Shown in pieces: positions 3,480 to 64,000 of a stretch of DNA of 64,000 nt; position 1 is the first letter of the stretch; each line of letters opens with the position of its first letter. Both the position numbers and the translations under genes were made by a program. Source of the stretch: Butyriboletus loyo. Taxonomy: Eukaryota > Basidiomycota > Agaricomycetes > Boletales > Boletaceae. The notes under the pieces were generated by a model that was not told the DNA's origin, did not search any database, and worked only from the letters and a program-made list of their open reading frames with translations. The stretch is taken from positions 1-64,000 of the forward strand of contig JBBPSI010000131.1 in assembly GCA_038093515.1 (NCBI GenBank). The letters are read 5' to 3'.

Positions 3480-4015
3480 GACAGCCGTCATGATATATCT
3501 CGGCTCGGCTTTCATGCTATACGACCGTGTCGTCGTTCTCCTGGCCATCACTACGTATTTTCAGCCACCGCTTGAGCTTGCTTATCTTGCCGTCGTGTTT
3601 CCGCTGCGAGGTCCAGTCACTGGTCTCGAGCGGTGGTCTTTATCACGCCATGACATCCGCACTCAGGAACGCCGAGATCGAGACGACGGAGGACTTATCC
3701 AGCCTGAAAAAATCTGGTCCTCGTCCATCCATGGCTCCACTGCCTCATTCATCATGCCCTTTCTTCCAAGGATGTGATTATGGACGGTAATCCCGAACCG
3801 CTCACCCCAGTCGATGGGGATGGCGCCTGGGATAGCGGATTCGACGCGCGCTCTCCCTTTACATTATACACCGTATCCCCTTCATTCGACAAGCTTACCA
3901 GAGCGCTACGGCTTTTCGTGCGCCTCAGACAGCCTTTCGGCGCGCTATAATATCGCTCACCCCTCAAACCTGACCAATGTTGCATGCTCTCGCACTTCGC
4001 GTTGCTTTCCGTAAG
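3480..4015 (+). pseudogene. Decayed C-terminus of a TPR-HET protein
   Basis: The plus-strand translation tracks the C-terminal region of the HET genes at 52.2 and 60.5 kb: AFMLYDRVV aligns with AAMLYDRVV, then VFPLRGPV, a frameshift, TSALRNAEIETTEDLSSL, then PLTPVDGDG, FDKLTRALRLFVRLRQPFGAL and a premature stop. At least two frameshifts are needed, so it cannot be functional. The segment resembling PVDGDGADSGFDA is closer to the 60.5 kb copy than to the 52.2 kb copy. It lies tail-to-tail with the GH31 gene that follows. Confidence 0.85.
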
Positions 4016-4263
4016 TCGTGTACCCCGTGGAAGTCACTCGACGACCGGACAGCAGTCAGGACTCCCGATCACAAGTCGGACCCAGACAGGCCTCTAACAA
4101 CGAACTGATTGTAGGCCGGCCGCAAACTTGGTGCATTCGCATGAGCGATGACGGGTTAAGTACATCATCAAACACATCAGGCAGTACAACAGTCCATCGG
4201 ACCAAGTGCATTTTGGAATATCACAACATATCACGATGGTTCTCCCCACTCGCCGTCTGCTAT

Positions 4264-7200
4264 CTATTTCCAGCTCACTGTCGTCTGCGCAGCGTTCAGC
4301 TCGATAGCCAAGTTCGAAATGATCAACTCCTCGTTCGCTGGATTGTGCGTCCATCCTTCCATTTCCCCGCAATTGAGTGTCACCGTCGTAGGCTGCTGCA
4401 CACCGAGAATAATGATCGTCTCGAGTTTCTGATCGATGGAGTACGCTCCCTGGCTCTCAACGACCAGTTCCCCTCCGCTTGCAAAGAAGCTCAAGGTACG
4501 GTTCGCGCCTGGAGGATAGCTCTCACCATCGTCAACGTAGGCATTGCCCCACGCGGTCCCTGCCATATTCAACGATACGAGGAGCGAATAAGGTCCCTGC
4601 CGTGTCTCATAGATCGTGTAGGCAGGTTCCTGGTGCAAGAGTAAGATGGAGCTATCTCGGATGTGGACGTTGATGTGGCTAATCGGGGCGCTCAAAGTTG
4701 TGTTTGTACCAGGAGTGGCATTGACGACAGCGTGGGTCCACCAGTCACGCCAGATAACAGTGCCTCTTCCGGGGAAGATACCTGGGGGTCCAAGCTAATT
4801 ATCAGATCATGTGTTTGCACGGGTGTCAACGGGAACGCACCGTCAACTGTGGTTGCTCCAGGAGTCAACACGGGGGTGATGAGGATGTCGCTTCCAATCA
4901 GCCACTGTCTGTCGACGTTGAAAAGCTCCGGCTCGTTGGGGAACTCGTAAAACAGGGCCCGAACCGGTGGGAGACCGTTAATAGAAGCGTTGGCAAAAAG
5001 GGTATACTATCATCCAACATGTCAGTACACTTCAGTGATTTTTCCCGAGGCACGTACCCAGTACGGTAACATCGAGTATCTGGCGGCAATCGCAATCTGC
5101 GATGCGTTCGCGACGCTGGCCCATCGGTAGGGTTCCTGAGGCAGAGCACCATAGGTGTTGTGGTTCCTGTAGAATGGAGTAAAGGCGGCAAGCTGCATCC
5201 ATCGGTTGCAAAGTTCTTCGTCGGTATTGCCATCTGAAAGGAGTTACAATGTTTCCATTCCAGCTTCATGAAACAGAACTGACTGAAACCACATGTGTCG
5301 GCACCAACCATTGGAATTTGGTAAATCTGGAACTGTAGAATGCCTTGGATGCTCAGGTACATGTATTGCCATTTACTGTAGTTGTCGCCGAGCTAGAGAG
5401 TGCATCAGAACTTGCGTGGAGCAGCCCTCAAAGGCCAGGACATACCCAATGGCCTGTCCACTTCCCGGAAGACGGGAAGGTCGAGCGACTGATCAAGAAT
5501 GGCCTCTTCCCATTGAAGATGGTCTGCACGGCGAGATGTGTGGTCTTCTCCTCCATCATCCCAAACATATTGTGTACGTCAAGCTCGGCGTAACCACCAT
5601 AATGAGTTGCATTCGTAGCCAGCGTGTTTGTCGAGAGTGCTCCATAACCTGATGGGTGGAGGAATGAATCAGTTGGAAATCAAATGGAAAGATACAAGAT
5701 TTGACCGTTGTGAATGGCGTATGGCGGGCTGTTAACGTTGACATTTGGCTCGCCTCCAGCGCCAACACCACGTTTCGCGAGTGTCTCCGTAGTTCCAGGT
5801 TGACAAGAGTTCGTCGACGTTCCGTTGATTGTCATATTGCCACTCGGTCCCCAGATAGTTTCATTGTAACTGTAGGAGAATGACACTCAGCATGTTGTAG
5901 TGGCAAATGGAGTCTAAACAATGCTGACCATTCAGGGTATACAGTTACCACAGTGCCGATCACGTTGAATGGTTGCAACGCCGAAGCATTCGCGCCGGTA
6001 CCGCTGTCCTCGAGATAAGCTCAGATTCTAGCTCAATCCTGAGGTTAGCTTACCAGGAATGACTGCAAAACGAGCTCGGTTCGTTCATGTCAAGCCAAAT
6101 ACCAGAGAAGTTGACGCCGAGTTCAGTCCAGTTCGTCAATGCCTCCGTCCACCATGCTTGGGTGTTCTCCGCGAACCAGTCAGGGAAAGTCTGTAGTCAT
6201 GAAACAGTCGGTACGAGTGGACACAGCATGGCAGAAACTCACTGAATAACCAGGCCAAACTTGTCCGATGTAGAGGGATCCGTCAGGGTTTTTGATGAAA
6301 GTATCGCTGCGTAGGGTGAGGTTGGACACACTGCAAAATATTTGAACCAACATACCTCGTGACACCGGCAGAGAATGGGTAATACTTGAAAGGTGATCAG
6401 GAAGTAATTAGACCTGCCCGAAGCCAGAGCTCACCACATCGGTCGTGTTGACAGTGACCCCAATACCTGCGTCTACAATAGGGATGTCTATGAAAATGAA
6501 CCTGTTCAACATACACTGCAGATCACGTTTATCAATGGAACACCTACAATGTTGGTAGTTGGCAGTCTAGTAAAACGAATTAATTGCTTTGTTCATTACA
6601 AAAATGGAAATCAGACAACTGACTAATTGCTCGATGAATTGATGGAGTTCATCAGCGGGGAACCTCACGGGATCGGTCGTAAAGTCACGGAATGCATGAT
6701 ACAAATCGATGTCATTCCACTGAACTGGTATCCCACGTAGGTGAGGGCCATTTAACCATCAGATGAAACAGACCTTCAAGAGGAATGTTTGCAGCGCGCA
6801 TAGCGGCAACGTTTGCGATGTCTTCACTGATGTTGACATATCCCCACCTCACATACCCTTTTCATTAATTTCTAGTCGACCAAGTGATAATCGATGGCCT
6901 ACCTGCACAAGTGGAATCCGAAGCCCCAAGCCGGCTGCCACATGGGATAACCAATTGTCGCCCCGTATTGAGCAATGACTTCAGCATCCGTAGGCCCAGA
7001 GAAGAAGTAAAAATCGAGAATTCCTCCGACCATTCGATACTCAATAAGCGACACCTGCGAATTAGGCGGAGTTTGTAAGAAGATATCAGACCCTGCAGAA
7101 CTGCCAGATCATTCCGATGTGTTCACGTGAAAGCATTGGTTGGTAATACCTGAGTAGTAAAACTCCCGACGACGACGACGTATTGGTGGTCTCGTTGAAG

Positions 7201-14129: not shown

Positions 14130-14480
14130 TTCCTAGTTTCCACGCCTTGTCAAGATCGTGTCTGGCCAGTGACACTTGCCAACAGGACGTTGTCCCGTTT
14201 GGGGATGCAGCTACGTTCGCGTTCGATAGGACAGACTCTTTCGTGTTAAACGGGGCCATCATGACTATGTACAGATGGTACGAACAATCGGTGTCCACGC
14301 TTGCTCTCCTTGCCAACCCGTTGAAACTTGGTAACCTACAGGACAGCACGTGCTTGAACACTCTTTGCACCAAGGGCGATCCGCTCCTATGGAAGCCATA
14401 CCTCAATGGCCCCCACCACAACCACAAAGACTCTCCCGTCATCGATGTAGAGTTGGGCATCTGCTGTCTCTGTTGATTCA
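14130..14480 (+). pseudogene. HET-domain relic
   Basis: The plus-strand frame contains, in the correct order, the core HET blocks of the 52/60 kb genes: ASDTCQQ (WSDTCCINQ in the intact genes), TDSFVLNGAIMTMYRWYEQSV (MDSLVLQESLTSMFQWYHDSA), then WKPYLNG and NHKDSPVI (WKPYCPD and NHKDSPKI). The stretch between SDTC and TDSF carries an insertion, and the WNTRAWTLQEF core is replaced by unrelated residues. No upstream TPR or downstream C-terminus is recognisable. Read as an old, truncated member of the same family on the opposite strand. Confidence 0.65.
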
Positions 14481-14489
14481 AAAATGCTC

Positions 14490-15490
14490 TATGCCTTTCG
14501 TCCGGGCGATTTAGGAGTGCCTGAGAAGCCACGCTTAACGTAGACACGACACGGCTCGCGACGATATAAGACATCGCATGTTCGTTGTTTGGAATTTTCG
14601 CTAGCGACCTCGGCCAACCAAAGTATGGCGGGGGCAAAGACACACTTGGACGGTTCTTGGAATAAATTGTCCATCGTTCGGGCGATGTAACGGTACTCGC
14701 CTGGACAGGGAATTCATTGGCACGATCCAACAGTTGTCAGAGATACCAGTCTACAACGAACGAACGAAGGAATGCGGTCGGTATCACCAAGCGATGCGAG
14801 CAAACTGAGAGCGCGGGTTGTGGAATTGGGCCGCAATCCCTATCATAGGCCGCAGTCGTGACGGCCTATGAACGGATCGCGAATCTACCCAAAGCATCGT
14901 TCGTCAATCGTCGCCTACGTCTTCCATGCCTTTACTGTCAACGGAATCGCGGTGGTGGTCGACGGTCCTCGATGGCCTGTCTATCGTGTTCCTGTCTCAG
15001 GGCTGGGTGACGTTGATATCAAGACTGCGGATCCATTTCTACTGCGGGAGCTACGCAGACTGAGGCTTCTTGTACATCCATCTCTCGAGTCCACTCGGTG
15101 AGATCACTCCAGCCGGAGGCCTTCGTGGCGAGTCCGTTGAATGAAACAAAGAAAAGATGATAGTACAATCAATCAATTTGAACAGATACGTACATACATG
15201 CATACACAGAACCAGCGAGAGAGCACAACACAACACAACCAGGACAGCACAACAAAACGAAAGCAATATCTAGGGGTACGTACGGGCAGTGGATATAGGC
15301 CGGAGCGCAGCGTACCCGCGAACGAAGTAAAGCGTCGACCTGTCAATCGTCAGGTTGAACTCGTAACGAACGAGCCGTCGAAGCGCTCGAGAAGCCTCGG
15401 TCAAGCCTCAAGACCTGGGGAGCCGAACGACGGCATCACTCAAGGCCACGTCGATGTTCGGGGAAGCGGCCCACACGAATTCCTCCTCCC
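14490..15490. other. No recognisable gene
   Basis: 1 kb between the HET relic and the 3' end of the C2H2 gene. A 77-codon plus-strand frame at 14868-15101 has no family I know. Confidence 0.4.
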
Positions 15491-50799: not shown

Positions 50800-51825
50800 T
50801 CATGATGCCAAATCCAAGTCCACTACTATCGCATCTCTCCGCTCGTTGTCTTCCTCATGCATGCCTGGCCCATCTCCTACACTCGCCGCATTCACAAGCA
50901 CCGTTTCCCGTCCCCACATCCGTATCGCCCGTCGTCCCCACCACCATGCGGACAATGTCGCTGTGATCGCGTGCCACATCAACTGGACAAACTGCACCCA
51001 CCTCGCTCCCGTCCCTGTGCCGGAATCGGCGGAGACACACATAGCCTCGAACGCGGGTTGGACATCATCCCAGCTCACACGTTCAACACCCCGCCCGGCA
51101 TGAATGTGCCCAAAGACATGTAACCTTGGACGAACGCGCCACAGCGCTGACAAAAGTGCAGCGCACCCCACCCCACGGTCAAGATGTCCCAACGGTGGCC
51201 CATGCGTCAAGAGCACGTCGATCCGGGGTGGTATCCTGGACCAGAGCGCAACGGATGGATGGTCTGTGTCGACGAAAGGCAGGAGGGTGCTGGAAAACTG
51301 GGGATAGGATGGGCGGAAGCGCGGGTATTGGAAAGCCCCTGCGCCGTATCGAGGGGTGTACGGACTGCCGTAGATACGCAGGGTGTGTCTGCGCACGGTC
51401 ACTTCTACCACGTCGTTCTCGAGGTAAGTCAATGCAGGGTACGTCTTGCGGATGTATGCGCGTGTCTCGGGTTCCGTGAGCGCGCTGTCGTGGTTCCCCG
51501 CGATGAATACCTTGATGGGATGGGGTTGCACGCTAAGCCATGTGAGGGCGTCGTAGAGCTCGGGGAGTGTACCTGACTCGGTGAGGTCGCCGGCGTGGAG
51601 GAGAATGTCGCCTGCTGGGAGAGGTGGTTGTGTGCTGTGCGTGTTGTGCGTGTCGGAGATGCAGATGATGCGAATGTCGGTCGGAGACGGTTGGGTGGGT
51701 GGAACCGGAACGGGGGACTGTGTCCATGCGTAGACGCGGCGTGCGAGGAAGAGCAGCGGGGACGCCCTGAAGTCGTCCAAGGCGGTCAGCGGTCGGCGAT
51801 GTATGAGTGAGTCGATCACGGACAT
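50800..51825 (-). CDS. Calcineurin-like metallophosphoesterase
   Basis: A single exon of 341 aa from the ATG at 51825; the frame stays open upstream, and an in-frame ATG near 51891 is possible. The metal-binding motifs of the calcineurin-like phosphoesterase fold are in order: ICISDTHNT (about 51660), LLHAGDLTE, IAGNHDSAL (about 51495), LLTHGPPLGHLDRGVG and FGHIHAGRG (about 51120). These supply the Asp, His, Asn and His ligands of the dinuclear centre. Layout and length match the fungal and animal MPPED-like cytosolic subgroup. Substrate unknown. A hydrophobic WHAITATLSAWWW stretch near residues 280-295 may be an insert or a membrane-associated segment. Confidence 0.9.
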   Translation of the reverse strand: MSVIDSLIHRRPLTALDDFRASPLLFLARRVYAWTQSPVPVPPTQPSPTDIRIICISDTHNTHSTQPPLPAGDILLHAGDLTESGTLPELYDALTWLSVQPHPIKVFIAGNHDSALTEPETRAYIRKTYPALTYLENDVVEVTVRRHTLRIYGSPYTPRYGAGAFQYPRFRPSYPQFSSTLLPFVDTDHPSVALWSRIPPRIDVLLTHGPPLGHLDRGVGCAALLSALWRVRPRLHVFGHIHAGRGVERVSWDDVQPAFEAMCVSADSGTGTGARWVQFVQLMWHAITATLSAWWWGRRAIRMWGRETVLVNAASVGDGPGMHEEDNERRDAIVVDLDLAS

Positions 51826-52212
51826 CGTTCGTGACTGTTGCTGATCAAACTCGATTTGACTCCTGAGTCTATGGAGACGACACGCTAGCATGGAAGAAAC
51901 ACTACCGTGAACGATCAGACCTTGAAAGATTGACCATCGCAGCACAAGCCATACTCCGATTTCCAGAGAAAGGGTAGCATACTTGTACACCTCGACTCGA
52001 CTAACGCAAGACTTTGTATCATGTACTTGACTATTATTTAAATAATGGGCGCCGAGTCACAGCAAAGGCTGCTATGATGCACGGAATACTACAAACATGG
52101 TGTATCGATATACATATTACGGAAAACAGCACGAGGAACGAGAACATACAACGGGCGAGTCTGGGATAGAAAGAGAAAGAGATCCGAAAATAAAGGACAG
52201 ACGAACTCCCAA

Positions 52213-55200
52213 CTACAAGATATCTATCGTCTGCATCTTGTCTACAAGGTACTGTGGTGGAACCCCCTTCAGTAATTGCACGACGATAGGGTGATCTGAT
52301 CCAACACGTTTGTATTCATTGTGGGATAGAGGAACGAGCAACAGCGCGCCGAAAGGCTGTCTGAGACGCGCGAAAAGCCGTAGCGCTCTGGTAAGCTTGT
52401 TGGATGAAGGGGATACTGTGTCTGTTGTAGTGGGGGGGAGCCCATCAGAATCGCCATACCCGCCACTGGCAGGCCCATCGAGTGGGGTGAGCGGTTCGGG
52501 GACATCATCCGTAATCACATCCCCAGAAGGAAGGGCAGGATCAAGGAGGCACCGGAGCCACGGATGCACGAGCACCAGATTCCTAAGGCCAGACAAGTCC
52601 TCCGTCGTCTGGATCTCGACGTTCCCGAGTGCGGATGTCATGGCCCGATAAACACGCTGAGAATCACCGCTCGAGACCGATGTGCCTCTCAGAGGAAATG
52701 TGATACAGGATAAGCTCAACCGACGGCTGACAAGACGTGGCGATGGGAGAAGGACGACCCGATCATATAGCATTGCAGCCGAGTCGAAATATCCCGGGGA
52801 TGTCTGTAGCTCTGCAACCAACGCCTCCATCTTGCCGTCTTCAATTCTCAACGGGATGCAGGGTGATGCAGGCTCGCGATATACGCCGATCTCCGTAGGA
52901 AGACAGCTGTTATAGTCGGATGCTGTCCCTGTCCAGGCCAGGATGGTGACATCACCTGACCGAGTCAACACTTCTTGCAACAGCCGACCCAGAGCGCGTT
53001 GTTGGCCTTCGCCATAATTGACCTGGATAGAGACATCAAATATACCAAACAGTGAATAGGCTATGTCCTCCTGCTTCGTAGCGACGCGCGTCGCAGCGAG
53101 ACAAAGTTTCCGCCGTACGTTCTCCGATCCAGGTTGGAGAGAGAGCAGAGCTTGTACATCAACCCCAGTTGCTGTTGCCATCTCGGCCATTATTTCGGGT
53201 GAATCCTTGTGGTTATACACACTCTCGTCAGGACAATAAGGTTTCCAATCTTCAGTGTAGAAACGAATGACCCGAGATGCAAAGAACTCTTGTAATGTCC
53301 AAGCACGAGTGTTCCAAAGACTCTTGATCAGAGAACGCAGCTCTGAGTTGGACCATACACCCTTGAGGTGAATGATCGTGAGCGCGGACTCGTGGTACCA
53401 CTGAAACATTGACGTCAGCGATTCCTGAAGTACTGAGCTGTCCGTTTGGTTGATACAACATGTGTCAGACCATGCCCACCGCAACCCAGACTCCTGCACT
53501 GTCTTGCAGAACATCACCAACTTCAAGACTGTGGATGATGGTGCCAGTTCGTGTATCGATTTATGAAGGGCGCCGTGGAAGAGCGGTTCGGCTTCAGCTC
53601 CTTCCCATGTATGGGAGAATGTAGCATATCGGAAGTATTCCTGAACGGTCTGCATGATGCGAGAGTTGTGGCGTTTTGTCGTAATGGATGCAACGAGCTC
53701 GTTGAATTTTGGATCAGCTTCAAATGAATCCATACGCTTGCGGCTGTTACAAAGGCGACCAGTCTCAGTGTCAATGAGGACGAGCGGAGCGGAGCGTTGA
53801 GTCCGTTTGACAGAGTTGCGAATAGCTGCCTTCGTCTGCGATGGGCTCACATAATTTTTACGTAGTTCTGCAGAATCCTCAGGTGATGCCTTCATTCGAG
53901 TGAGAGATATTTACCTTGAGTAACAGGATCTGGAGACTGTTCAAGCTTGATAAGCATATCGTTATAAGTGTTGATTGCTTCATCGTAATGGTGAGCGCCA
54001 AGTAGTGCTGCATGCTTTCTTTCGTAGCCACGTGGAGATGATGGGTCGAGTTTGATCACCTGGGACATATTGGCTGTTTGCTTCGGTGTAAATCAGGATA
54101 CACATACCGCATCGGCATCCTCCAGCGAATCTTCCCATGATCCCATCTCAGCTCGTGCTTTGCTTCGCTTCGTCAAAAGGTCCATCGATGAAGGATCGAG
54201 GGCCAGTGCTGCAGTGTAATGGGCAACAGCATCTTTGTGTGAAGCAGAGTTCATGGCGACATCTCCGTGTTTCTCCAGCGTCGACATGCATTGGGTCTTG
54301 AACTCTGATGGTAGAAATTAAATAGTTTATCGTCATGCGTGATGCCAAAACTCACTGGCAAGCCAGTCCATTATAATGGTGTTGGCTCTGACCTCCTCAT
54401 TGTTGATGTTGATGATCTCAAGAAGAGAGTGTGCGGCATCGATTATGTGGCCATCAGCATAAAGTGCGTCGCATTTATGTTTCTGCTCGTGCGCATGAAC
54501 GATCTGGAGGAGGCTATCTGTTCTGCGTTGGCAATCGACATGCTGGGCGCGGAGTTGCTGTTCGAGATCGGCGATTTTGCTTTCTAATAGGCGGGGATGT
54601 CAACGAGGCGCGAGCCACGATGGCAATGTTCGTACTCGAGTTGATCTCCTGTGCACGAAGCGACTCGATAGATTCTTGAATAAGCGTAATGTTGCTGTCT
54701 AATGAACGTGGATGTCAACGACACGCAAGTCAGGGCGGTGATGGACGTACTCAGGTTCCTGTTCTGTGCACGAAGGGACTCGGTTGTATCTTCAAGATCG
54801 ACCTTTTCCGCCCTCAAGCGCTGCATTTCCTGCTCAACAAAAACCCGCAGCAGTCAATAAAGTGGTTTGTTATCATGAGACTGCCACACAGCGAGATTTT
54901 TGATGCAAGTCCACTTACATTGTGAAAATAGGGTGGAAAAAAGATGTCATAGAGAGTATGAAGCGCGATTATCTTTCCGCCAGCCAGTGCAAAGTCGTAG
55001 TTTGCTGAGATAGTCATGGATGCGACGGTAGCCGTATGCTGGATGACAGACCCAATTTGCTTGTGCGTCGTAGTGTCCCAGAAAGAGACCGACGAGTTTG
55101 CGGAAGCTGCGATGAATGTGTCGTTGCTTGCCAGGGCGATGCACCTGGGGTCATCGTTGCTGTGGATGGACCATTGAGAGCGCACGGTCACGGTGTAGAC

Positions 55201-56098
55201 GTCAAGACACATGACGGTGCCATTGCCAGATAACGCAAAGAGTTGCTTGCTATCGCTGGTCCAAGCAAGCGATTGGTTTGACAGTGACTTGATTTTTATT
55301 GGGACATCGACGAGGAGGCGGCCGTTCTGACTGTTGTAGATCCGAACGCAGTCGTACGACGCGGCGGTGGCGATAAGGCGTCCGTCGGGTGATGATTTGA
55401 CTACAGTGAGCTTGTTATCGTGTTTCAAGGGGCCGAGCAGTCGTTCACCAGTCGACAGCGACCAGACGTAGGCAGTGTTGTCGCATGATCCGGTCACGAT
55501 TCTCGTCCCATCCAGAGAGACGTCCACCGCATTCACCGGTTCGTTGTGTCCCCGGAACGCCGTCAGCTTTTCGTGGCCCTTCGCATTCCAAACCGTCACC
55601 TCGCCACTTTCCGACCCACTCACGAGCCACTTTCCATCTCGTGACACAGCGATACTCCAAACGGGGCTCCCTGCATCCATTGGCGTCCCCACCTCCAAGC
55701 CGTCTTCTACTCGCCAACGCCGAATCTCTCCGTCCTTGCCACCGCCCACGATGTGCTTCCCATCAACGAGGAAGGCGACCGAGCATATCTCGTCTAGAGC
55801 GTCGATTTCAATGAGTTTTGCTTGCTGTTGAACGGTGCTGGCGGAGGAACTGTTTCCACTCGCCGACTCTTGAGTCCCCCTCAGTATCACACTCTCAAAG
55901 GTCTCGCCCATGTACTCACCATTCCTTGACTGCGTGCTTTCTCTTCGTGACATGCTTGGCCAAGAACCACTGAGCTGAGCGATGCGCGGTCGTCCACTGA
56001 CGGTAAGCTGCTGCACACGTGCCTCCTGAGTCCTTATCGATATACATCAGTTCACACACTTATAATCATTTCTCGGCACTAGTTCTCACCCCAATCAT
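52213..56098 (-). CDS. WD40 - coiled-coil - TPR - HET protein (HET1), heterokaryon-incompatibility family
   Basis: Eight exons (56098-56090, 56025-54919, 54829-54751, 54698-54636, 54583-54356, 54304-54108, 54059-53915, 53867-52213) join in frame to 1160 aa. Residues ~65-370 hold about seven WD40-like blades (VWSIAVSRDGKWLVSGSESG, then VTVWN; VNAVDVSLDGTRIVTGS). Next is a coiled coil (LRAEKVDLEDTTESLRAQ), then TPR units (HKDAVAHYTAALALDPSS; YDEAINTYNDMLIKLEQS). The HET domain follows: FSHTWEGAEAEPLFH, WSDTCCINQ, STSMFQWYHESA-like region, NTRAWTLQEFFASRVIRFY and DIAYSLFGIFDVSI. The C-terminus is PFGALLLVPLSHNEYKR. HET domains trigger programmed cell death in fungal nonself recognition; the trigger here is unknown. 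A longer frame starting with Met at 53895 begins inside an intron and is not the true start. Confidence 0.85.
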
Positions 56099-58461: not shown

Positions 58462-59670
58462 TCATGCATGCGTTAGGCTCGCTCGACGCGGTAGAAGTGC
58501 AAGACGCGCGTATGCGCTGCGTGTTGAGCAGCCTCTATTCGCCTTTTCGCAAACATGAATAGGCGCACGCTCACGCTTTCGAGGCGAGAGCGCATCTGGG
58601 TCCCTTTCGTCAACAATGATCGTTTTTGGCATCTCGTCGTACCACGCTCGGACGTCCGCACCCACGAGGTTGAAGAAGCGCTCCAATGGGGGTATCAGAA
58701 CCCTCGAGATGTAATAGGACGCGTCAATGCGCAGTTGCCTGGGTCGTTCTATATCAGCCTCGGTTGCGCTTTGCAGGGTATCGGGGCGCACCGGTTGGCC
58801 AGAAACCCTTCTGGCGTGATGGCTCTCTCCGCGAGGCGTGTATGTGGGTCACCGCGCACGATGACATATGGTACACAATCAGCATACTGAGCTTCATCGT
58901 TTTCGTCCTCTATAATTCTTCGCGCAGCCACTGCAACACCAGGCAGCGGAGGCACCTTGTCGCTGACAAACGAACATAGCTCTAGCCTTCCTGCACGATG
59001 AAAACCAAAAATCACAGCGACTTTTTCTCACCTATATGTCCCCATCTTGACTTCCTTTGCAAAAATGAAATCTTGCAAGGAAATTCTGTTGCGCAATGGT
59101 TTCGACCACGTTTTGTAGCAGTAGCTCTTGACCTCGCTCAGGTCTTGCGTACGGAACAGAATCCCGAAATATTGTTAGCATAAACCTCGGGCATGGTCCG
59201 CGACGGACGTCACAGACTTCAAGCACGTCTCAGTCATCTTTGCCTGAGCCGGTACACCGCGATGCCTTTGGCATCAAACGTGGGTTCGGTATCTCATATT
59301 TGAAACCAACGTGACTCTTCTTCGCCATGAGTATGCATGGCAAGTATACCTTTCCCAACGCCTTCAGTCCCGGCTGAACGGTATGTATATGCAACCCCCC
59401 TACATCATGCTCACCTTTTCAAACTTGAGCTTGACAGGTACGGTCGGTTCATGGCCTGATCGTATCCTCAATCTCGTATCTAATCTTCAACGCCTGTTCC
59501 TTTGTTTCACCCTTGAGATAGATGAATACCGAATCCGTATCTCCATACACGACTCTCGCGCCCCATTTCTCCGTGGTGCTGGCCTGTGTCATCAAGAACG
59601 ACGCGGGGTAGTAGCCTCGACACGACAGGTCGGGGCGTCTCCCGACCGCTCTGTATGATACTTTCTGCGA
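58462..59670 (-). pseudogene. REV3: Fragment of DNA polymerase zeta catalytic subunit (REV3), frameshifted
   Basis: Read from 59670 downward, the B-family polymerase C-terminal half appears in order but in changing frames. The blocks are AESIIQSGRET, then TEKWGARVVYGDTDSVFIYLKG (polymerase motif C, YGDTDS), PVKLKFEK, VYLPCILMAKKSHVGFKYE, FDAKGI, KMTETCLK, LFRTQDLSEVKSY, ISLQDFIFAKEVKMGTY, ARRIIEDENDEAQYA, VPYVIVRGDPHTRLAERAITPE and finally YYISRVLIPPLERFFNLVGADVRAWYDEMP. At least four frameshifts are needed. The exonuclease and palm motif A regions are missing, because a GH31 fragment starts within about 20 bases upstream. It is therefore a truncated, non-functional copy; the parent gene lies elsewhere. 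Confidence 0.85.
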
Positions 59671-59689
59671 TCTCAACCGCGGCCTGTCA

Positions 59690-60030
59690 TTGAATGTGGC
59701 ATCCACCCCATCCGGAAATGCCCACTGCGGTGACGACGGCGAAAGCTGCCCTCCTGGAGCGAGCCATACTTTGGGCTGCTTCGCAAAGACTGGCGATTTG
59801 GGCACATTTGGGAGCAAGGGAGAGTACTCTATCGGTCAGAAACTCGAGAAGATAATATTACCATTCTCGGTGTCCAGCAGCCGGCGACGGTGACACGGAA
59901 TGGCAAGGAGATCGAAAGACAGATGTACAACTTGAATACTGGGAACGAGGAGTCGATCATTTCGAACTTGTCTATCGAGCTGAACGCCGTGCAGACGAAA
60001 CGTGACTGAGCTGGAAATAGAGAGCGGACA
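59690..60030 (+). pseudogene. GH31 alpha-glucosidase 3'-end relic
   Basis: Matches the last ~110 codons of the GH31 gene at 4264-4600: AHCGDDGESCPPGASHTLGC against [31 protein letters not shown] against [12 protein letters not shown], and SNLSIELNAVQTK against [13 protein letters not shown]. It is broken by a frameshift after the QKLEKII block. Similarity continues past the stop codon into the 3' flank (agcagacgg/gagcggaca, then ccatcgtgatat, ttgtgatatt), showing genomic duplication rather than an mRNA copy. Confidence 0.85.
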
Positions 60031-60483
60031 AAGGATGGCCATCGTGATATTTTTGTGTGATATTCTTGGTCAAATGAAGGACATACTGCTTGGCGTATTT
60101 TAATGATACGCTTATCGTGGGGCAAAGTAAAAATGTTGCGCTAGTTACTGCTGCGACTGCCGCCCAACGCCTATATACCTAGGTGTGAATCAATGAACCC
60201 CAGGAGTAGCCTGGAGTACGACGAACACGCGGTCTCGTCGTTGTTCGGGCGAACGCGCCAAGTTCCTGACCGGACTACAGTCAATTCAATATTGCTGGAG
60301 ACCAGTCTGGAACATCCTAGCTACTGTCGGGTTACAACAACGATTGCCATGATACACGGGCTCACTACAAACAGGGTACGGAAAGCAGTACGAAGAGCGA
60401 GAACATACAACGGTCGAGTATGAGATAGCAAGAGAAAGAGATACGGAAACAAAGATGGATGAACCTCCACGAAAGTACGGTAA

Positions 60484-63269
60484 CTACAAGATATCTAGCG
60501 TCCGTATCTTGTCTACGAGATAGCGCGGTGAAACGTTCTCCAGTAGCTGGACGACGATAGGCTGATCACATGCAATACGTTTGTATTCATTGTGGGACAG
60601 AGGGGCGAGTAATAGCGCGCCGAAAGGTTGTCTGAGACGCGTAAAAAGCCGCAGCGCACTGGTAAGGTTGTCGAATGAAGAGGATATGGTGTGTGATAGA
60701 GAGGGAGAGAGCGCATCGAATCCGCTATCCGCGCCATCCCCATCGACTGGGGTGAGTGGTTCGGCATCATCATCCGCAATCAGATCCCCAGAAGGAAGGG
60801 CAGGATCAAGGAGGCACCGGAGCCACGGATGCACGAGCACCAGATTCCTAAGGCCAGACAAGTCCTCCGTCGTCTCGATCTCGACGTTCCCGAGTGCGGA
60901 TGTCATGGCCCGATAAACACGCTGAGAATCACCGCTCGAGACCAATGTGCCTCTCAGAGGAAATGTGATACAGGATAAGCTCAACCGACGGCTGACAAGA
61001 CGTGGCGATGGGAGAAGGACGACCCGATCATATAGCATTGCAGCCGAGTCGAAATATCCCGGGGATGTCTGTAGCTCTGCAACCAACGCCTCCATCTTGC
61101 CGTCTTCAATTCTCAACGGGATGCAGGGTGATGCAGGCTCGCGATATACGCCGATCTCCGTAGGAAGACAGCTGTTATAGTCGGATGCTGTCCCTGTCCA
61201 GGCTAGGATGGTGACATCACCTGACCGGGTCAACACCTCTTGCAACAACCGACCCAGAGCACGTTGTTGGCCCTCGCCATAATTGACTTGAATAGAAACG
61301 TCAAATATACCGAACAGCGAATAGGCTATGTCCTCTTGCTTTGTAGCGATGCGTGTGGCGGCAAGACAAAGTTTCTGCCGTACATTCCCCGATCCGGGTC
61401 GGAGAGAGAGTAGAACTTGTACATCAACCCCAGTTGCTGCTGCCATCTCGGCCATTATTTTGGGTGAATCCTTGTGGTTATACACCCTCTCGTCAGGACA
61501 ATAAGGTTTCCAATCTTCAGTGTAGAAACGAATGACCCGAGATGCAAAGAACTCCTGCAATGTCCATGCACGAGTGTTCCAAAGACTCCTGATCAGAGAA
61601 CGCAGCTCTGAGTCGGATCGTACACCCTTGAGGTGAATGATCGTGAGCGCGGAGTCGTGATACCACTGAAACATTGACGTCAGCGATTCCTGAAGCACCA
61701 AGCTGTCCATTTGGTTGATACAACATGTGTCAGACCATGCCCACCGCAACCCAGCCTCCTGCACTGTCTTGCAGAACATCACCAGCTTCAAAACTGTGGA
61801 TGATGGTGCCAGTTCGTGTACTGATTTATGAAGGACAGCGTGGAACAGCAGTTCGGCTTCAGCTCCTTCCCAGGTATGGGAGAATGTGGCATATCGGAAG
61901 TATTCCTGAACGGTCTGCGTGATGCGAGAGTTGTTGCCTCTTGTCGTAATGGATGCAACGAGTTCCTTGAATTTTGGATCAGCTTCGAATGCATCCATAC
62001 GCTCGGGCTTGTTACAAAGGCGACCAGTCTGCGTGTCAATGAGGACGAGGGGAGCGTCCCGTTGAGTTTGTTTGATAGAGTTGCGAATAGTTGCGATCGT
62101 CTGTGATGGGCTCAAATAGCGGCTGCGCAATTCTGCGACAAGTAGACTTCTCAGGCAATGCTTTCATTCGAGTGAGAAATATTTACCCCGAGTAACAGGA
62201 TCTGGAGACTGTTCAAGCTTCAGAAGCATATCGTTGTATGTTTTGATTGCTTCATCGTAACGGTGAGCGCCAAGAAGTGCCGCATGCTTTCTTTCGTAGC
62301 CACGTGGAGATGATGGATCACGTTTGATTGCCTGGAATGACATTGGCCGTTTACCCCCGTAAATCAGGAAACACATACCACGTCAGCATCCTCGAGGGAA
62401 TCTTGCCATGGTCCAGTCTCAGTTCGTGCTTTTCTTCGCTTGGTCAAAAGGTTCATCGATGAAGGATCGAGGGCCAATGCTGTAGTGTAATGGACAACAG
62501 CGCCTTTGTGTGAAGCAGAGTCCATTGCTGGCTTGCCAAATGCCGTCGTAGTCGTCCCTCCCAACGCAGACTGCATTGAACTCGTCCCAAAAGCAGATGG
62601 CGCGGATGTTGTAAATGCAGGCACTGAGGGACTTGCAGAAGCTTGGGCCTGAGTGCTGACCTTCAGAGCTTGCTCATACAGCTGTCTGACATTGGTGCGC
62701 GCGTTGATGTATATTTGATCTGCAGTTTCAATGCGCTGTCCTTCATACCCGACCTGATCACAAGTTAGTTGTGTGTAGAGTACAGTGAAGAACCACGTAC
62801 ATATTCATCAGGCGTGCCTGCTTTGAGGGCGGTGACTGCTTTCAGACGCAATTCTTCAGGCGATTCATCCAGTCCACTGAGAACATCAAGTTCGTACGTG
62901 GCAGGACCATAGGAAGAAAGTGGCCACAGTGGCTTGTCCTTGAGAGGAGTAAGGTCGGCTGTCATCGTCTCTATCCTGAGGAGTACTCGATCGTTCGCAC
63001 GGGCAGGAGGAGTGATCCCAAATGCGACTCACGTGTACCGAAACGCGACTCTGTTAATACCGGAAGTCCAAGTCTGGTCTACAGGACGACGTTAGCTCAT
63101 TAGGATAGAACAGATTACTCATATACCAACCGCCAAAGTTCCCTGAGGCACCCGGATGATCACGTAGACATCGATTTCCAAACTTGCATGTTCCGCGTAG
63201 ATAGTACGAGCATACCGTCTGTAACAATAATCAGCACTGCTTGCATGGTCAGATGTATGGATTTACCAT
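60484..63269 (-). CDS. Chimeric Nup42-like nucleoporin fused to TPR-HET (HET2)
   Basis: Exons 63269-63267, 63218-63131, 63078-63033, 62975-62801, 62753-62379, 62331-62187 and 62132-60484 join in frame to 826 aa. Exon 1 is the start codon alone. Residues 4-22 form a C-x7-C-x5-C-x3-H zinc finger (CSYYLRGTCKFGNRCLRDH). The block LTPLKDKPLWPLSSYGPA and LDESPEELRLKAVTALKAGT follows, then an Ala/Ser/FG linker (SAFGTS, TAFGKP). This is the layout of fungal Nup42/CCCH nucleoporins of the mRNA-export side of the pore, but truncated. From M181 onward the sequence is that of HET1: DSASHKGAVVHYTTALALDP, the second TPR, HET core (WSDTCCINQ, NTRAWTLQEFFASRVIRFY) and LLAPLSHNEYKR to a stop at 60484. The WD40 and coiled-coil part of HET1 is absent. 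No break in frame was found; transcription is untested. Confidence 0.85.
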
Positions 63270-64000
63270 TGTAAGGGGCGATACAGGTGAGGTCGCGTAC
63301 TAGTACTGGTTCAGCCTAGTATATTTGAGGTTGTTTACCAACAGCTTCCGCATTCATTAAGTATAAATAAACCCCCCTTCTGTCGTCGTAGTGCACTGGC
63401 AATAACGGAAACGATACATTCAGGCGCTCAAAGTTTCACCTATACTCTGATAATCACACCTTTACTCTCATCTGATCTTGACGGAAGCATTTCTGTATTC
63501 GAGAAGTGGTGCTGGGCCCACCTATGACTTGTCAGTGGGTTATGGTTTAGGTTCAACATATCACCTACTCTAAGCAGGTAAGGGTAAATATCGCGGGACC
63601 TTTAGGTATGGAGTACGAAACTTAGCTTCGGGGTAACAGGATTCCGTGGACCAGCAATTCTACAGCACATTGCCTAGCCAGTGGGACTTTGAACGTCACT
63701 CTATTTCCACCGGTTTCGCAGAAGTTTCTGGGTGACTTTGCTGACCATCTCAGCATCACTCATCATGCTGGGATTCCAGCAAGATTAAATTACTTGTTGC
63801 GTCTTGGAAGGATTCGTCCTTATGCTGGTGGACGACAAGGCATATGCTCAGTCCCCATCTGAGAGCAGACAGTTACTCATGATTGAGACAACTAGTTGCT
63901 GTGGTGTGTTCCCTTGCTCTCCATCATGGTTCTAACTTTCCAATTGAAGGATTCTATAATGCGGAACTGACGACGTGAGTCATGTCTTTGCTCAGAAATC
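63270..64000. other. Window end, no confident gene
   Basis: Upstream of the chimeric gene. TATAAATA at about 63362 is on the plus strand. Around 63715-63860 the plus strand reads GDFADHLSI, then PARLNYLLRLGRIRPYAGGRQG, which looks like protein-coding sequence of an unknown family that may continue beyond the window. Confidence 0.35.

What the first reader, a model, noticed from the sequence alone, without database searches (positions are those of the whole stretch)
60484..63269. In-frame fusion of a Nup42-like CCCH/FG nucleoporin to a TPR-HET cell-death module
Seen: one unbroken splice chain links a CCCH finger, the PLWPLSSYGP block and an FG-containing linker to TPR-HET sequence paralogous to 52213-54254. 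Homology to HET1 starts sharply at the ATG codon at 62525-62523 (54254-54252 in HET1). Known: HET domains execute nonself-triggered cell death in fungi; Nup42-type proteins sit at the cytoplasmic face of the nuclear pore. Inference: the duplication replaced the WD40/coiled-coil sensor of a HET protein with a host nucleoporin segment, under the nucleoporin's promoter. This could act as an integrated decoy guarding mRNA export, or simply be a non-adaptive chimera that kept its frame. I know of no described nucleoporin-HET fusion.
Basis: partly seen in the sequence, partly recalled or inferred. Interest (0 to 1): 0.9.

Follow-up and report, generated by a model that had tools for sequence, protein, structure and literature searches.

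The report
Nucleoporin fragment fused to cell-death gene
In a bolete-type mushroom genome, a copied piece of a nuclear-pore gene, with its upstream control region, landed inside a cell-death gene and made one uninterrupted chimeric gene; the event is clear in the DNA, but whether the chimera works as an immune sensor is unknown.

Summary
The fusion is real at DNA level. A 7-exon, 826-residue frame (63269-60484, minus) joins the first ~183 residues of a Nup42-type protein to TPR-HET, with the junction inside one exon. Just beyond the window, HET homology resumes at base 64588 of the same contig, where it stopped at 62525. So a 2,062-bp piece (62526-64587), about five-sixths of it copied from the Nup42 locus (upstream region, four introns, CCCH exons), was inserted beside an internal Met codon of a WD40-coiled coil-TPR-HET gene and cut off its WD40 half. 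An intact Nup42 with FG repeats and NUP42-type tail remains on another contig. The fusion lacks that tail and nearly all FG repeats, so pore anchoring is doubtful. The TPR-HET half looks conserved (lineage dN/dS 0.13, like its paralogues). The Nup42 half differs from the intact copy at pairwise dN/dS 0.90 with its frame kept. Best reading: promoter/leader capture that kept a TPR-HET executor in use. An integrated decoy is not excluded but has little support. The organism is Boletaceae-like, not Ceratobasidiaceae. No other species' fusion was found.

The parts
60484..63269 (-). fusion gene Nup42N-TPR-HET, 7 exons (63269-63267, 63218-63131, 63078-63033, 62975-62801, 62753-62379, 62331-62187, 62132-60484), 826 residues
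   Evidence: splice model; Pfam
62526..64000 (-). part of the insertion that lies in the window; the insertion goes on to C131:64587 (2,062 bp in all). 62526 to about 64242 is copied from the Nup42 locus on C92; about 64243-64587 has no other copy found
63270..64000 (-). copied upstream (promoter-side) region of Nup42; the near 290 aligned bp differ at 12.4%, the farther 666 at 15.2% (the latter reach past the window)
62526..63269 (-). Nup42-derived coding part: CCCH finger, PLWPLSSYGP and GLDESPEELR blocks, short linker with 2 FG
62525..62526 (-). junction inside exon 5: ..AFGKPA | MDSASH.. (one edge of the insertion; the other edge is at C131:64587/64588); no target-site duplication or terminal inverted repeat seen
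60484..62525 (-). TPR-HET part; the break cuts the first helix of the first TPR (by eye); HET core blocks kept
60156..60483 (-). 3' flank shared with the C311 paralogue
52213..56046 (-). HET1: WD40-coiled coil-TPR-HET paralogue without the insertion (TPR-HET exons 54254-54108, 54059-53915, 53867-52213; WD40 open frame 54814-56046, gene start not determined)

Best explanation
Shown by sequence: a DNA-level (introns kept) copy of the 5' half of Nup42 with its upstream region was inserted beside an internal Met codon in the first TPR of a WD40-coiled coil-TPR-HET gene. Nup42 codons run in frame into TPR-HET within one exon. Intact Nup42 stays on C92, and the severed WD40-coiled-coil half lies upstream and is broken. 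Inferred: the chimera is transcribed from the captured Nup42 promoter and is kept because it still delivers the TPR-HET cell-death module, now without its WD40 sensor, possibly as an executor or partner used by neighbouring HET proteins. The Nup42 piece would act mainly as promoter and N-terminal leader. Its frame must stay open but its sequence is only loosely constrained. [quoted passage not shown]
For: Insertion: HET homology stops at 62525 and resumes at 64588; the two matching positions have one base between them in each of HET1, HET2 and C311. HET1, HET2, C311 and C304 run uninterrupted through that point (read). Nup42 introns and upstream DNA are present, 88.0% over 1,063 columns. Source direction: C92 carries the full gene, and the gene next to it (secreted-looking) resembles the N-terminus that the Melanogaster gene model P0002 has joined to Nup42 (by eye). 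Of 30 HET loci of this genome held with ~1.5 kb on each side, 1, the fusion, has Nup42 sequence. TPR-HET kept: fusion-lineage changes 16 synonymous and 7 replacement, dN/dS 0.13, against 0.14, 0.16 and 0.22 for three paralogues (270-282 codons where the four others agree; leaving C304 out, 0.19 against 0.20-0.31). At neutral rates an open frame has simulated probability at most 0.0005 for this half and 0.12, 0.02 or 0.002 for the Nup42 half, by the rates assumed. Nup42 half: dN 0.094, dS 0.104, ratio 0.90 over 180 codons; its only internal exon gap is 9 bp, against 20 gaps in 956 aligned bp upstream. Partial constraint: of 69 columns conserved at 70% or more, 5 differ where 12.2 or 9.7 are expected, P 0.004 or 0.03.
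Against: No RNA evidence of any kind. Conserved-column constraint is weaker or absent at stricter thresholds (53 columns: P 0.02 or 0.07; 29 columns: P 0.20 or 0.40). Some TPR-HET conservation may come from gene conversion: fusion and HET1 are 99-100% identical in windows over about 450 nt. Some fusion-lineage changes may predate the insertion. The first 75 codons after the junction carry more fusion-lineage change (4 synonymous, 4 replacement) than in the paralogues (0-1 each). The split of replacements between fusion and intact copy depends on the outgroup: 24 to 4 with C. virens, 20 to 4 with C. virens and B. edulis together, even with B. edulis alone (97 of 128 matches each). The severed WD40 piece shows no raised dN/dS against other paralogues, so its death rests on truncation and lost splice sites.
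Confidence: 0.58

Rival explanations
1. Integrated decoy: the Nup42 piece is bait that a virus or antagonist acting on mRNA export binds or modifies; this triggers the attached TPR-HET and kills the cell.
For: A host-gene piece fused to a cell-death module while the intact gene is kept elsewhere. CCCH finger and the PLWPLSSYGP/GLDESPEELR blocks are kept, apart from a K72T next to the former. High replacement rate. Review passages propose guard and decoy models for fungi (PMC10197012; PMC5658179).
Against: No trigger known. NUP42-type tail and most FG repeats are lost. Found in no other species: 0 of 58 and 0 of 116 Nup42 homologues list a HET domain. A ratio near 0.9 also fits relaxed constraint.
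Confidence: 0.12
2. Non-functional chimera on its way to becoming a pseudogene.
For: Single copy; first TPR helix lost (by eye); Nup42-part ratio 0.90; the contig also holds a HET remnant with four stops and a polymerase fragment.
Against: Six introns and an 826-residue frame intact. Open TPR-HET frame improbable under neutrality, at most 0.0005. Fusion-lineage dN/dS 0.13.
Confidence: 0.2
3. Two products rather than one: a truncated Nup42 message and, separately, TPR-HET translated from the Met codon at 62525 or a start inside it.
For: The break is beside a Met codon; a short TPR-HET gene model without WD40 exists in a related bolete (P0061, 688 residues; P0064 is similar but marked partial).
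Against: No stop or modelled splice site separates the two parts in exon 5; the open Nup42 frame would not be needed.
Confidence: 0.07
4. Assembly artefact.
For: Repeated gene family near a contig end (C131 is 71,395 bp).
Against: The Nup42 side differs from C92 by about 12% and the HET side from C311 by 8%, so neither is a collapsed copy. HET homology resumes at the matching place on the far side. No third Nup42 locus was found in the assembly.
Confidence: 0.03

Closest known systems
WD40-coiled coil-TPR-HET and TPR-HET proteins of Boletaceae (e.g. Lanmaoa asiatica P0060, Boletus coccyginus P0063)
   Same: Same TPR-HET module (72-76% identity for these) and paralogues in this genome
   Different: The ones read carry WD40, TPR or coiled coil in front, or start at the TPR; this one carries a Nup42 5' half and lacks the first TPR helix
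Nup42 / Amo1 / NUP42 (NLP1) nucleoporins
   Same: CCCH finger, PLWPLSSYGP block, GLDESPEELR block; four intron positions shared with the intact copy
   Different: No NUP42-type tail and nearly no FG repeats; ends in TPR-HET
HET-NACHT-WD40 NLRs (HET-E/D/R of Podospora; passages of PMC12881547)
   Same: HET cell-death domain; WD40 repeats present in the ancestral paralogues
   Different: No NACHT or NB-ARC domain found; HET is C-terminal
Integrated-decoy NLRs of plants (recalled; fungal version suggested in PMC5658179, passages read)
   Same: Duplicated host-protein piece fused to an immune executor, parent gene kept
   Different: No trigger, no NOD domain and no recurrence across species shown

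Membership tests
HET domain proteins (PF06985) | HET domain above Pfam cut-off | tested here: met
   38.3 bits against 22.5; the HET exon aligned with 25 homologues shares the invariant core columns
HET domain proteins (PF06985) | TIR-like fold | tested here: inconclusive
HET domain proteins (PF06985) | triggers cell death | not testable with these tools
   needs expression
Nup42 nucleoporins | CCCH finger and conserved N-terminal block | tested here: met
Nup42 nucleoporins | FG-repeat domain | tested here: not met
   2 FG in the linker (6 in the whole chimera); intact copy has 19
Nup42 nucleoporins | C-terminal Gle1-binding motif | tested here: not met
   A profile of 8 Nup42 tails, the intact copy's among them, finds NUP42 peptides 6b4e, 7tbl, 6b4j and 6b4f as the top 4 of 6 hits, E 0.0067-0.0087 (that these peptides bind Gle1 is recalled); the fusion's reading frame does not include this tail
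Fungal NLR | NACHT or NB-ARC domain | tested here: not met
   none in the Pfam scan up to E 1
Integrated decoy | duplicated host piece fused to an executor, parent gene kept | tested here: met
Integrated decoy | fusion kept across species or isolates | tested here: inconclusive
   0 of 58 and 0 of 116 Nup42 homologues list HET; this species' own proteins did not appear among the hits and DNA of sister species is not in the collections
Integrated decoy | bait part recognised by an antagonist | not testable with these tools
   no trigger known

The most novel reading that the evidence does not exclude
A fungal HET receptor that gained a nucleoporin-derived N-terminus in one insertion and uses it as bait for agents that attack mRNA export. 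It would be an integrated decoy without a NOD domain, caught soon after birth with parent gene, ancestral receptor copies and severed old sensor all still visible in one genome.
Probability: 0.12. Interest if true: 0.85.

Novelty: new variant of a known kind. Interest (0 to 1): 0.58.

Why it matters
It shows in one locus how a HET cell-death gene can lose its sensor and gain a new promoter and N-terminus in a single insertion, with the ancestral pieces still present as controls: the parent Nup42, four HET paralogues without the insertion, and the cut-off WD40 half. That makes sensor turnover in fungal cell-death genes testable. If the Nup42 part proves to be bait, it would be an early natural example of an integrated decoy in fungi.

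Tried and rejected
Ceratobasidiaceae origin: rejected. Rhizoctonia and Ceratobasidium Nup42 proteins are 30-37% identical (P0049, P0055, P0200, P0203) against 63% (fusion) and 76% (intact) for Chiua virens.

Retrocopy: rejected, four introns kept. Canonical Helitron or TIR transposon as carrier: no matching ends, terminal inverted repeat or target-site duplication seen (Helitron end rules recalled). The ~345-bp end segment (64243-64587) has no other copy found in the assembly, so the carrier stays unknown.

Faster decay of the severed WD40 piece: looked for, not found in dN/dS (0.55-0.79 against 0.54-0.71 among other paralogues, 114 codons). Fast fusion branch in the Nup42 part: supported by 8 of 10 outgroups being closer to the intact copy, 2 ties, but B. 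edulis is one of the ties. The tree groups the fusion with B. edulis at 57% support, which I do not believe given 89% identical introns, but I cannot explain the shared 3-residue gap and residues.

Structure search gave no confident relative; TIR-like kinship is taken from papers (PMC4986451, PMC12881547: passages). Single-sequence PDB search with the Nup42 tail found nothing useful.

Novelty in print: 'nucleoporin' + 'HET domain' + 'heterokaryon incompatibility' gave 1 paper (PMC4835503, listing only). 'HET domain' + 'integrated decoy' + fungi + NLR gave 2. 'HET domain' with CCCH, fungal, gene fusion (at least 3 of 4 terms) gave 26, 10 listed; with chimeric gene or domain shuffling 1. None shows this fusion by title or abstract start; only open-licence papers are searched.

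Full report
What is there. The window is contig C131, bases 1-64000, of an unnamed 30.3-Mb assembly; the contig ends at 71,395. On the minus strand, 63269 to 60484 encodes one spliced frame of 826 residues in seven exons with GT..AG introns. Pfam finds a CCCH finger at residues 2-23 and a HET domain at 358-452. Residues from about 177 to 287 match Hop/STI1 and other TPR structures (best 7kw7, residues 180-269, E 1.2e-16). The Nup42/HET junction lies inside exon 5, so any transcript of that exon carries it. Intron 2 uses an unusual GTTGGT donor in both copies. The protein model of Chiua virens (P0001) reads the matching residues across that point, which supports the splice.

The parent gene. 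Contig C92 holds an intact Nup42-type gene of 486 residues with the first four introns at the same places and 19 FG dipeptides. A profile of eight Nup42 tails, the intact copy's included, finds solved NUP42 peptides as its top four of six hits, E 0.0067-0.0087; that these bind Gle1 is recalled. A search of the whole assembly with this protein finds two loci, C92 and the fusion (6 exon matches in all). Next to it on C92, by eye, is a secreted-looking gene resembling the N-terminus that a Melanogaster gene model (P0002) has fused to its Nup42. So C92 is taken as the ancestral place and the fusion as holding the copy.

The insertion. The window ends before the answer. Reading on (L009), HET homology resumes at C131:64588. 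The positions that match 62525 and 64588 have one base between them in HET1 (54254/54256), HET2 (69641/69643) and C311 (3105/3107); in C304 the local alignment resumes 12 bases further out on both sequences. So 2,062 bp (62526-64587) sit inside what was a WD40-coiled coil-TPR-HET gene. About 62526-64242 matches the Nup42 locus, 88.0% over the 1,063-column block that spans the coding part. About 64243-64587 has no second copy found in the assembly. I saw no target-site duplication or inverted ends. The stranded WD40-coiled-coil half, 64588-65607, lacks the first half of its WD40 domain. It has also lost one coiled-coil intron acceptor through a 21-bp gap and carries a changed donor at the last intron (by eye on the alignment). 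The break cuts the first helix of the first TPR (by eye against the Hop TPR1 match).

Selection. In the TPR-HET half, fusion-lineage changes at codons where four paralogues agree number 16 synonymous and 7 replacement (dN/dS 0.13), against 0.22, 0.14 and 0.16 for HET1, HET2 and C311 (273, 275, 282 and 270 codons); without C304, 0.19 against 0.31, 0.20 and 0.23. Restriction to agreeing codons lowers all these values. The first 75 codons after the junction are the exception: 4 synonymous and 4 replacement fusion-lineage changes against 0-1 each in the paralogues. Pairwise, fusion against C311 gives 0.31 over 646 codons; in the Nup42 half, fusion against intact gives 0.90 (dN 0.094, dS 0.104, 180 codons). 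Intron divergence is 0.106 and near-upstream 0.124, so replacement change in the Nup42 half is close to the neutral level. Yet its frame is open and conserved columns are partly spared: of 69 columns conserved at 70% or more, 5 differ where 12.2 (36 changes) or 9.7 (28 changes) are expected, P 0.004 or 0.03. At 80%, 4 of 53, P 0.02 or 0.07; at 90%, 3 of 29, P 0.20 or 0.40 (the first 45 of the 58 homologues used). Of the 36 replacements, C. virens agrees with the intact copy at 24, with the fusion at 4 and with neither at 8. With B. edulis alone the two are equal, 97 of 128 columns each. Neutral simulation gives an open Nup42 half with probability 0.12, 0.02 or 0.002 and an open TPR-HET half with at most 0.0005, by the rates assumed. 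Gene conversion also helps keep the HET exon alike: fusion and HET1 are 99-100% identical in windows over about 450 nt.

Distribution. Of the 30 HET loci of this genome held with about 1.5 kb on each side (L019-L048, out of 54 matches), one, the fusion, has Nup42 sequence. Outside, none of 58 and none of 116 Nup42 homologues list the HET family among their precomputed domains. None of the 120 listed of 1,449 TPR-HET homologues covers more than 95% of fusion residues 120-826, nearly all of them 92% or less, so none reaches far into the Nup42 part. The best named matches are Boletaceae. No protein identical or nearly identical to this genome's own appeared, so the species is probably not in that database and absence elsewhere is weak evidence.

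How it most likely works. HET domains are cell-death effectors in fungi, distantly related to TIR (passages of PMC4986451; PMC10197012; PMC12881547). The insertion removed the WD40 sensor and supplied a new promoter and start (inferred). The conserved TPR-HET half suggests the executor is still used; the loosely held Nup42 half suggests a leader more than a sensor. A nucleoporin role is unlikely without the NUP42-type tail. The decoy reading stays open, because its genomic prerequisites are met and fungal decoy domains have been proposed (one passage of PMC5658179), but nothing here tests it.

Verdict. A real, unusual gene fusion made by insertion; function unproven.

Noticed in passing
C131:64588-65607 (just beyond the window; L009 1089-2108): Severed WD40-coiled-coil half of the HET gene that received the insertion; 5'-truncated, with damaged intron sites.
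   Followed up: yes
L009 4109-7896 (C131:67608-71395): Another, apparently full-length WD40-coiled coil-TPR-HET gene (HET2) at the contig end, so HET1, the fusion and HET2 lie in one direction on one contig.
   Followed up: partly
window 59449-59835 (-): Fragment of a B-family DNA polymerase gene (Pfam E 4.7e-8) downstream of the fusion; similar DNA lies beside the C311 HET gene (L011 7029-7771).
   Followed up: partly
window 3636-3948 and 4255-4460: Inverted fragments matching the 3' part of the HET genes and 59808-60029.
   Followed up: no
window 14165-14710: HET remnant with four stop codons.
   Followed up: no
window about 60780-61230 and 52510-52960: Near-identical stretch shared by fusion and HET1 (99-100% windows, codon-alignment columns 1200-1650), a sign of gene conversion between neighbours.
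   Followed up: yes
L010 5494-6220: About 600-700 bp upstream of intact Nup42 that the fusion's copy lacks.
   Followed up: no
L010 4589 and window 62800: Intron 4 has a GC donor in intact Nup42 and GT in the fusion copy.
   Followed up: no
window 62526-62720; protein P0179: The fusion's Nup42 part shares a 3-residue gap and several residues with Boletus edulis Nup42 against the intact copy of its own genome; unexplained.
   Followed up: partly
window 50800-52056 (-): Calcineurin-like phosphoesterase open frame next to HET1; a fragment of it recurs at C131:66782-67053.
   Followed up: no
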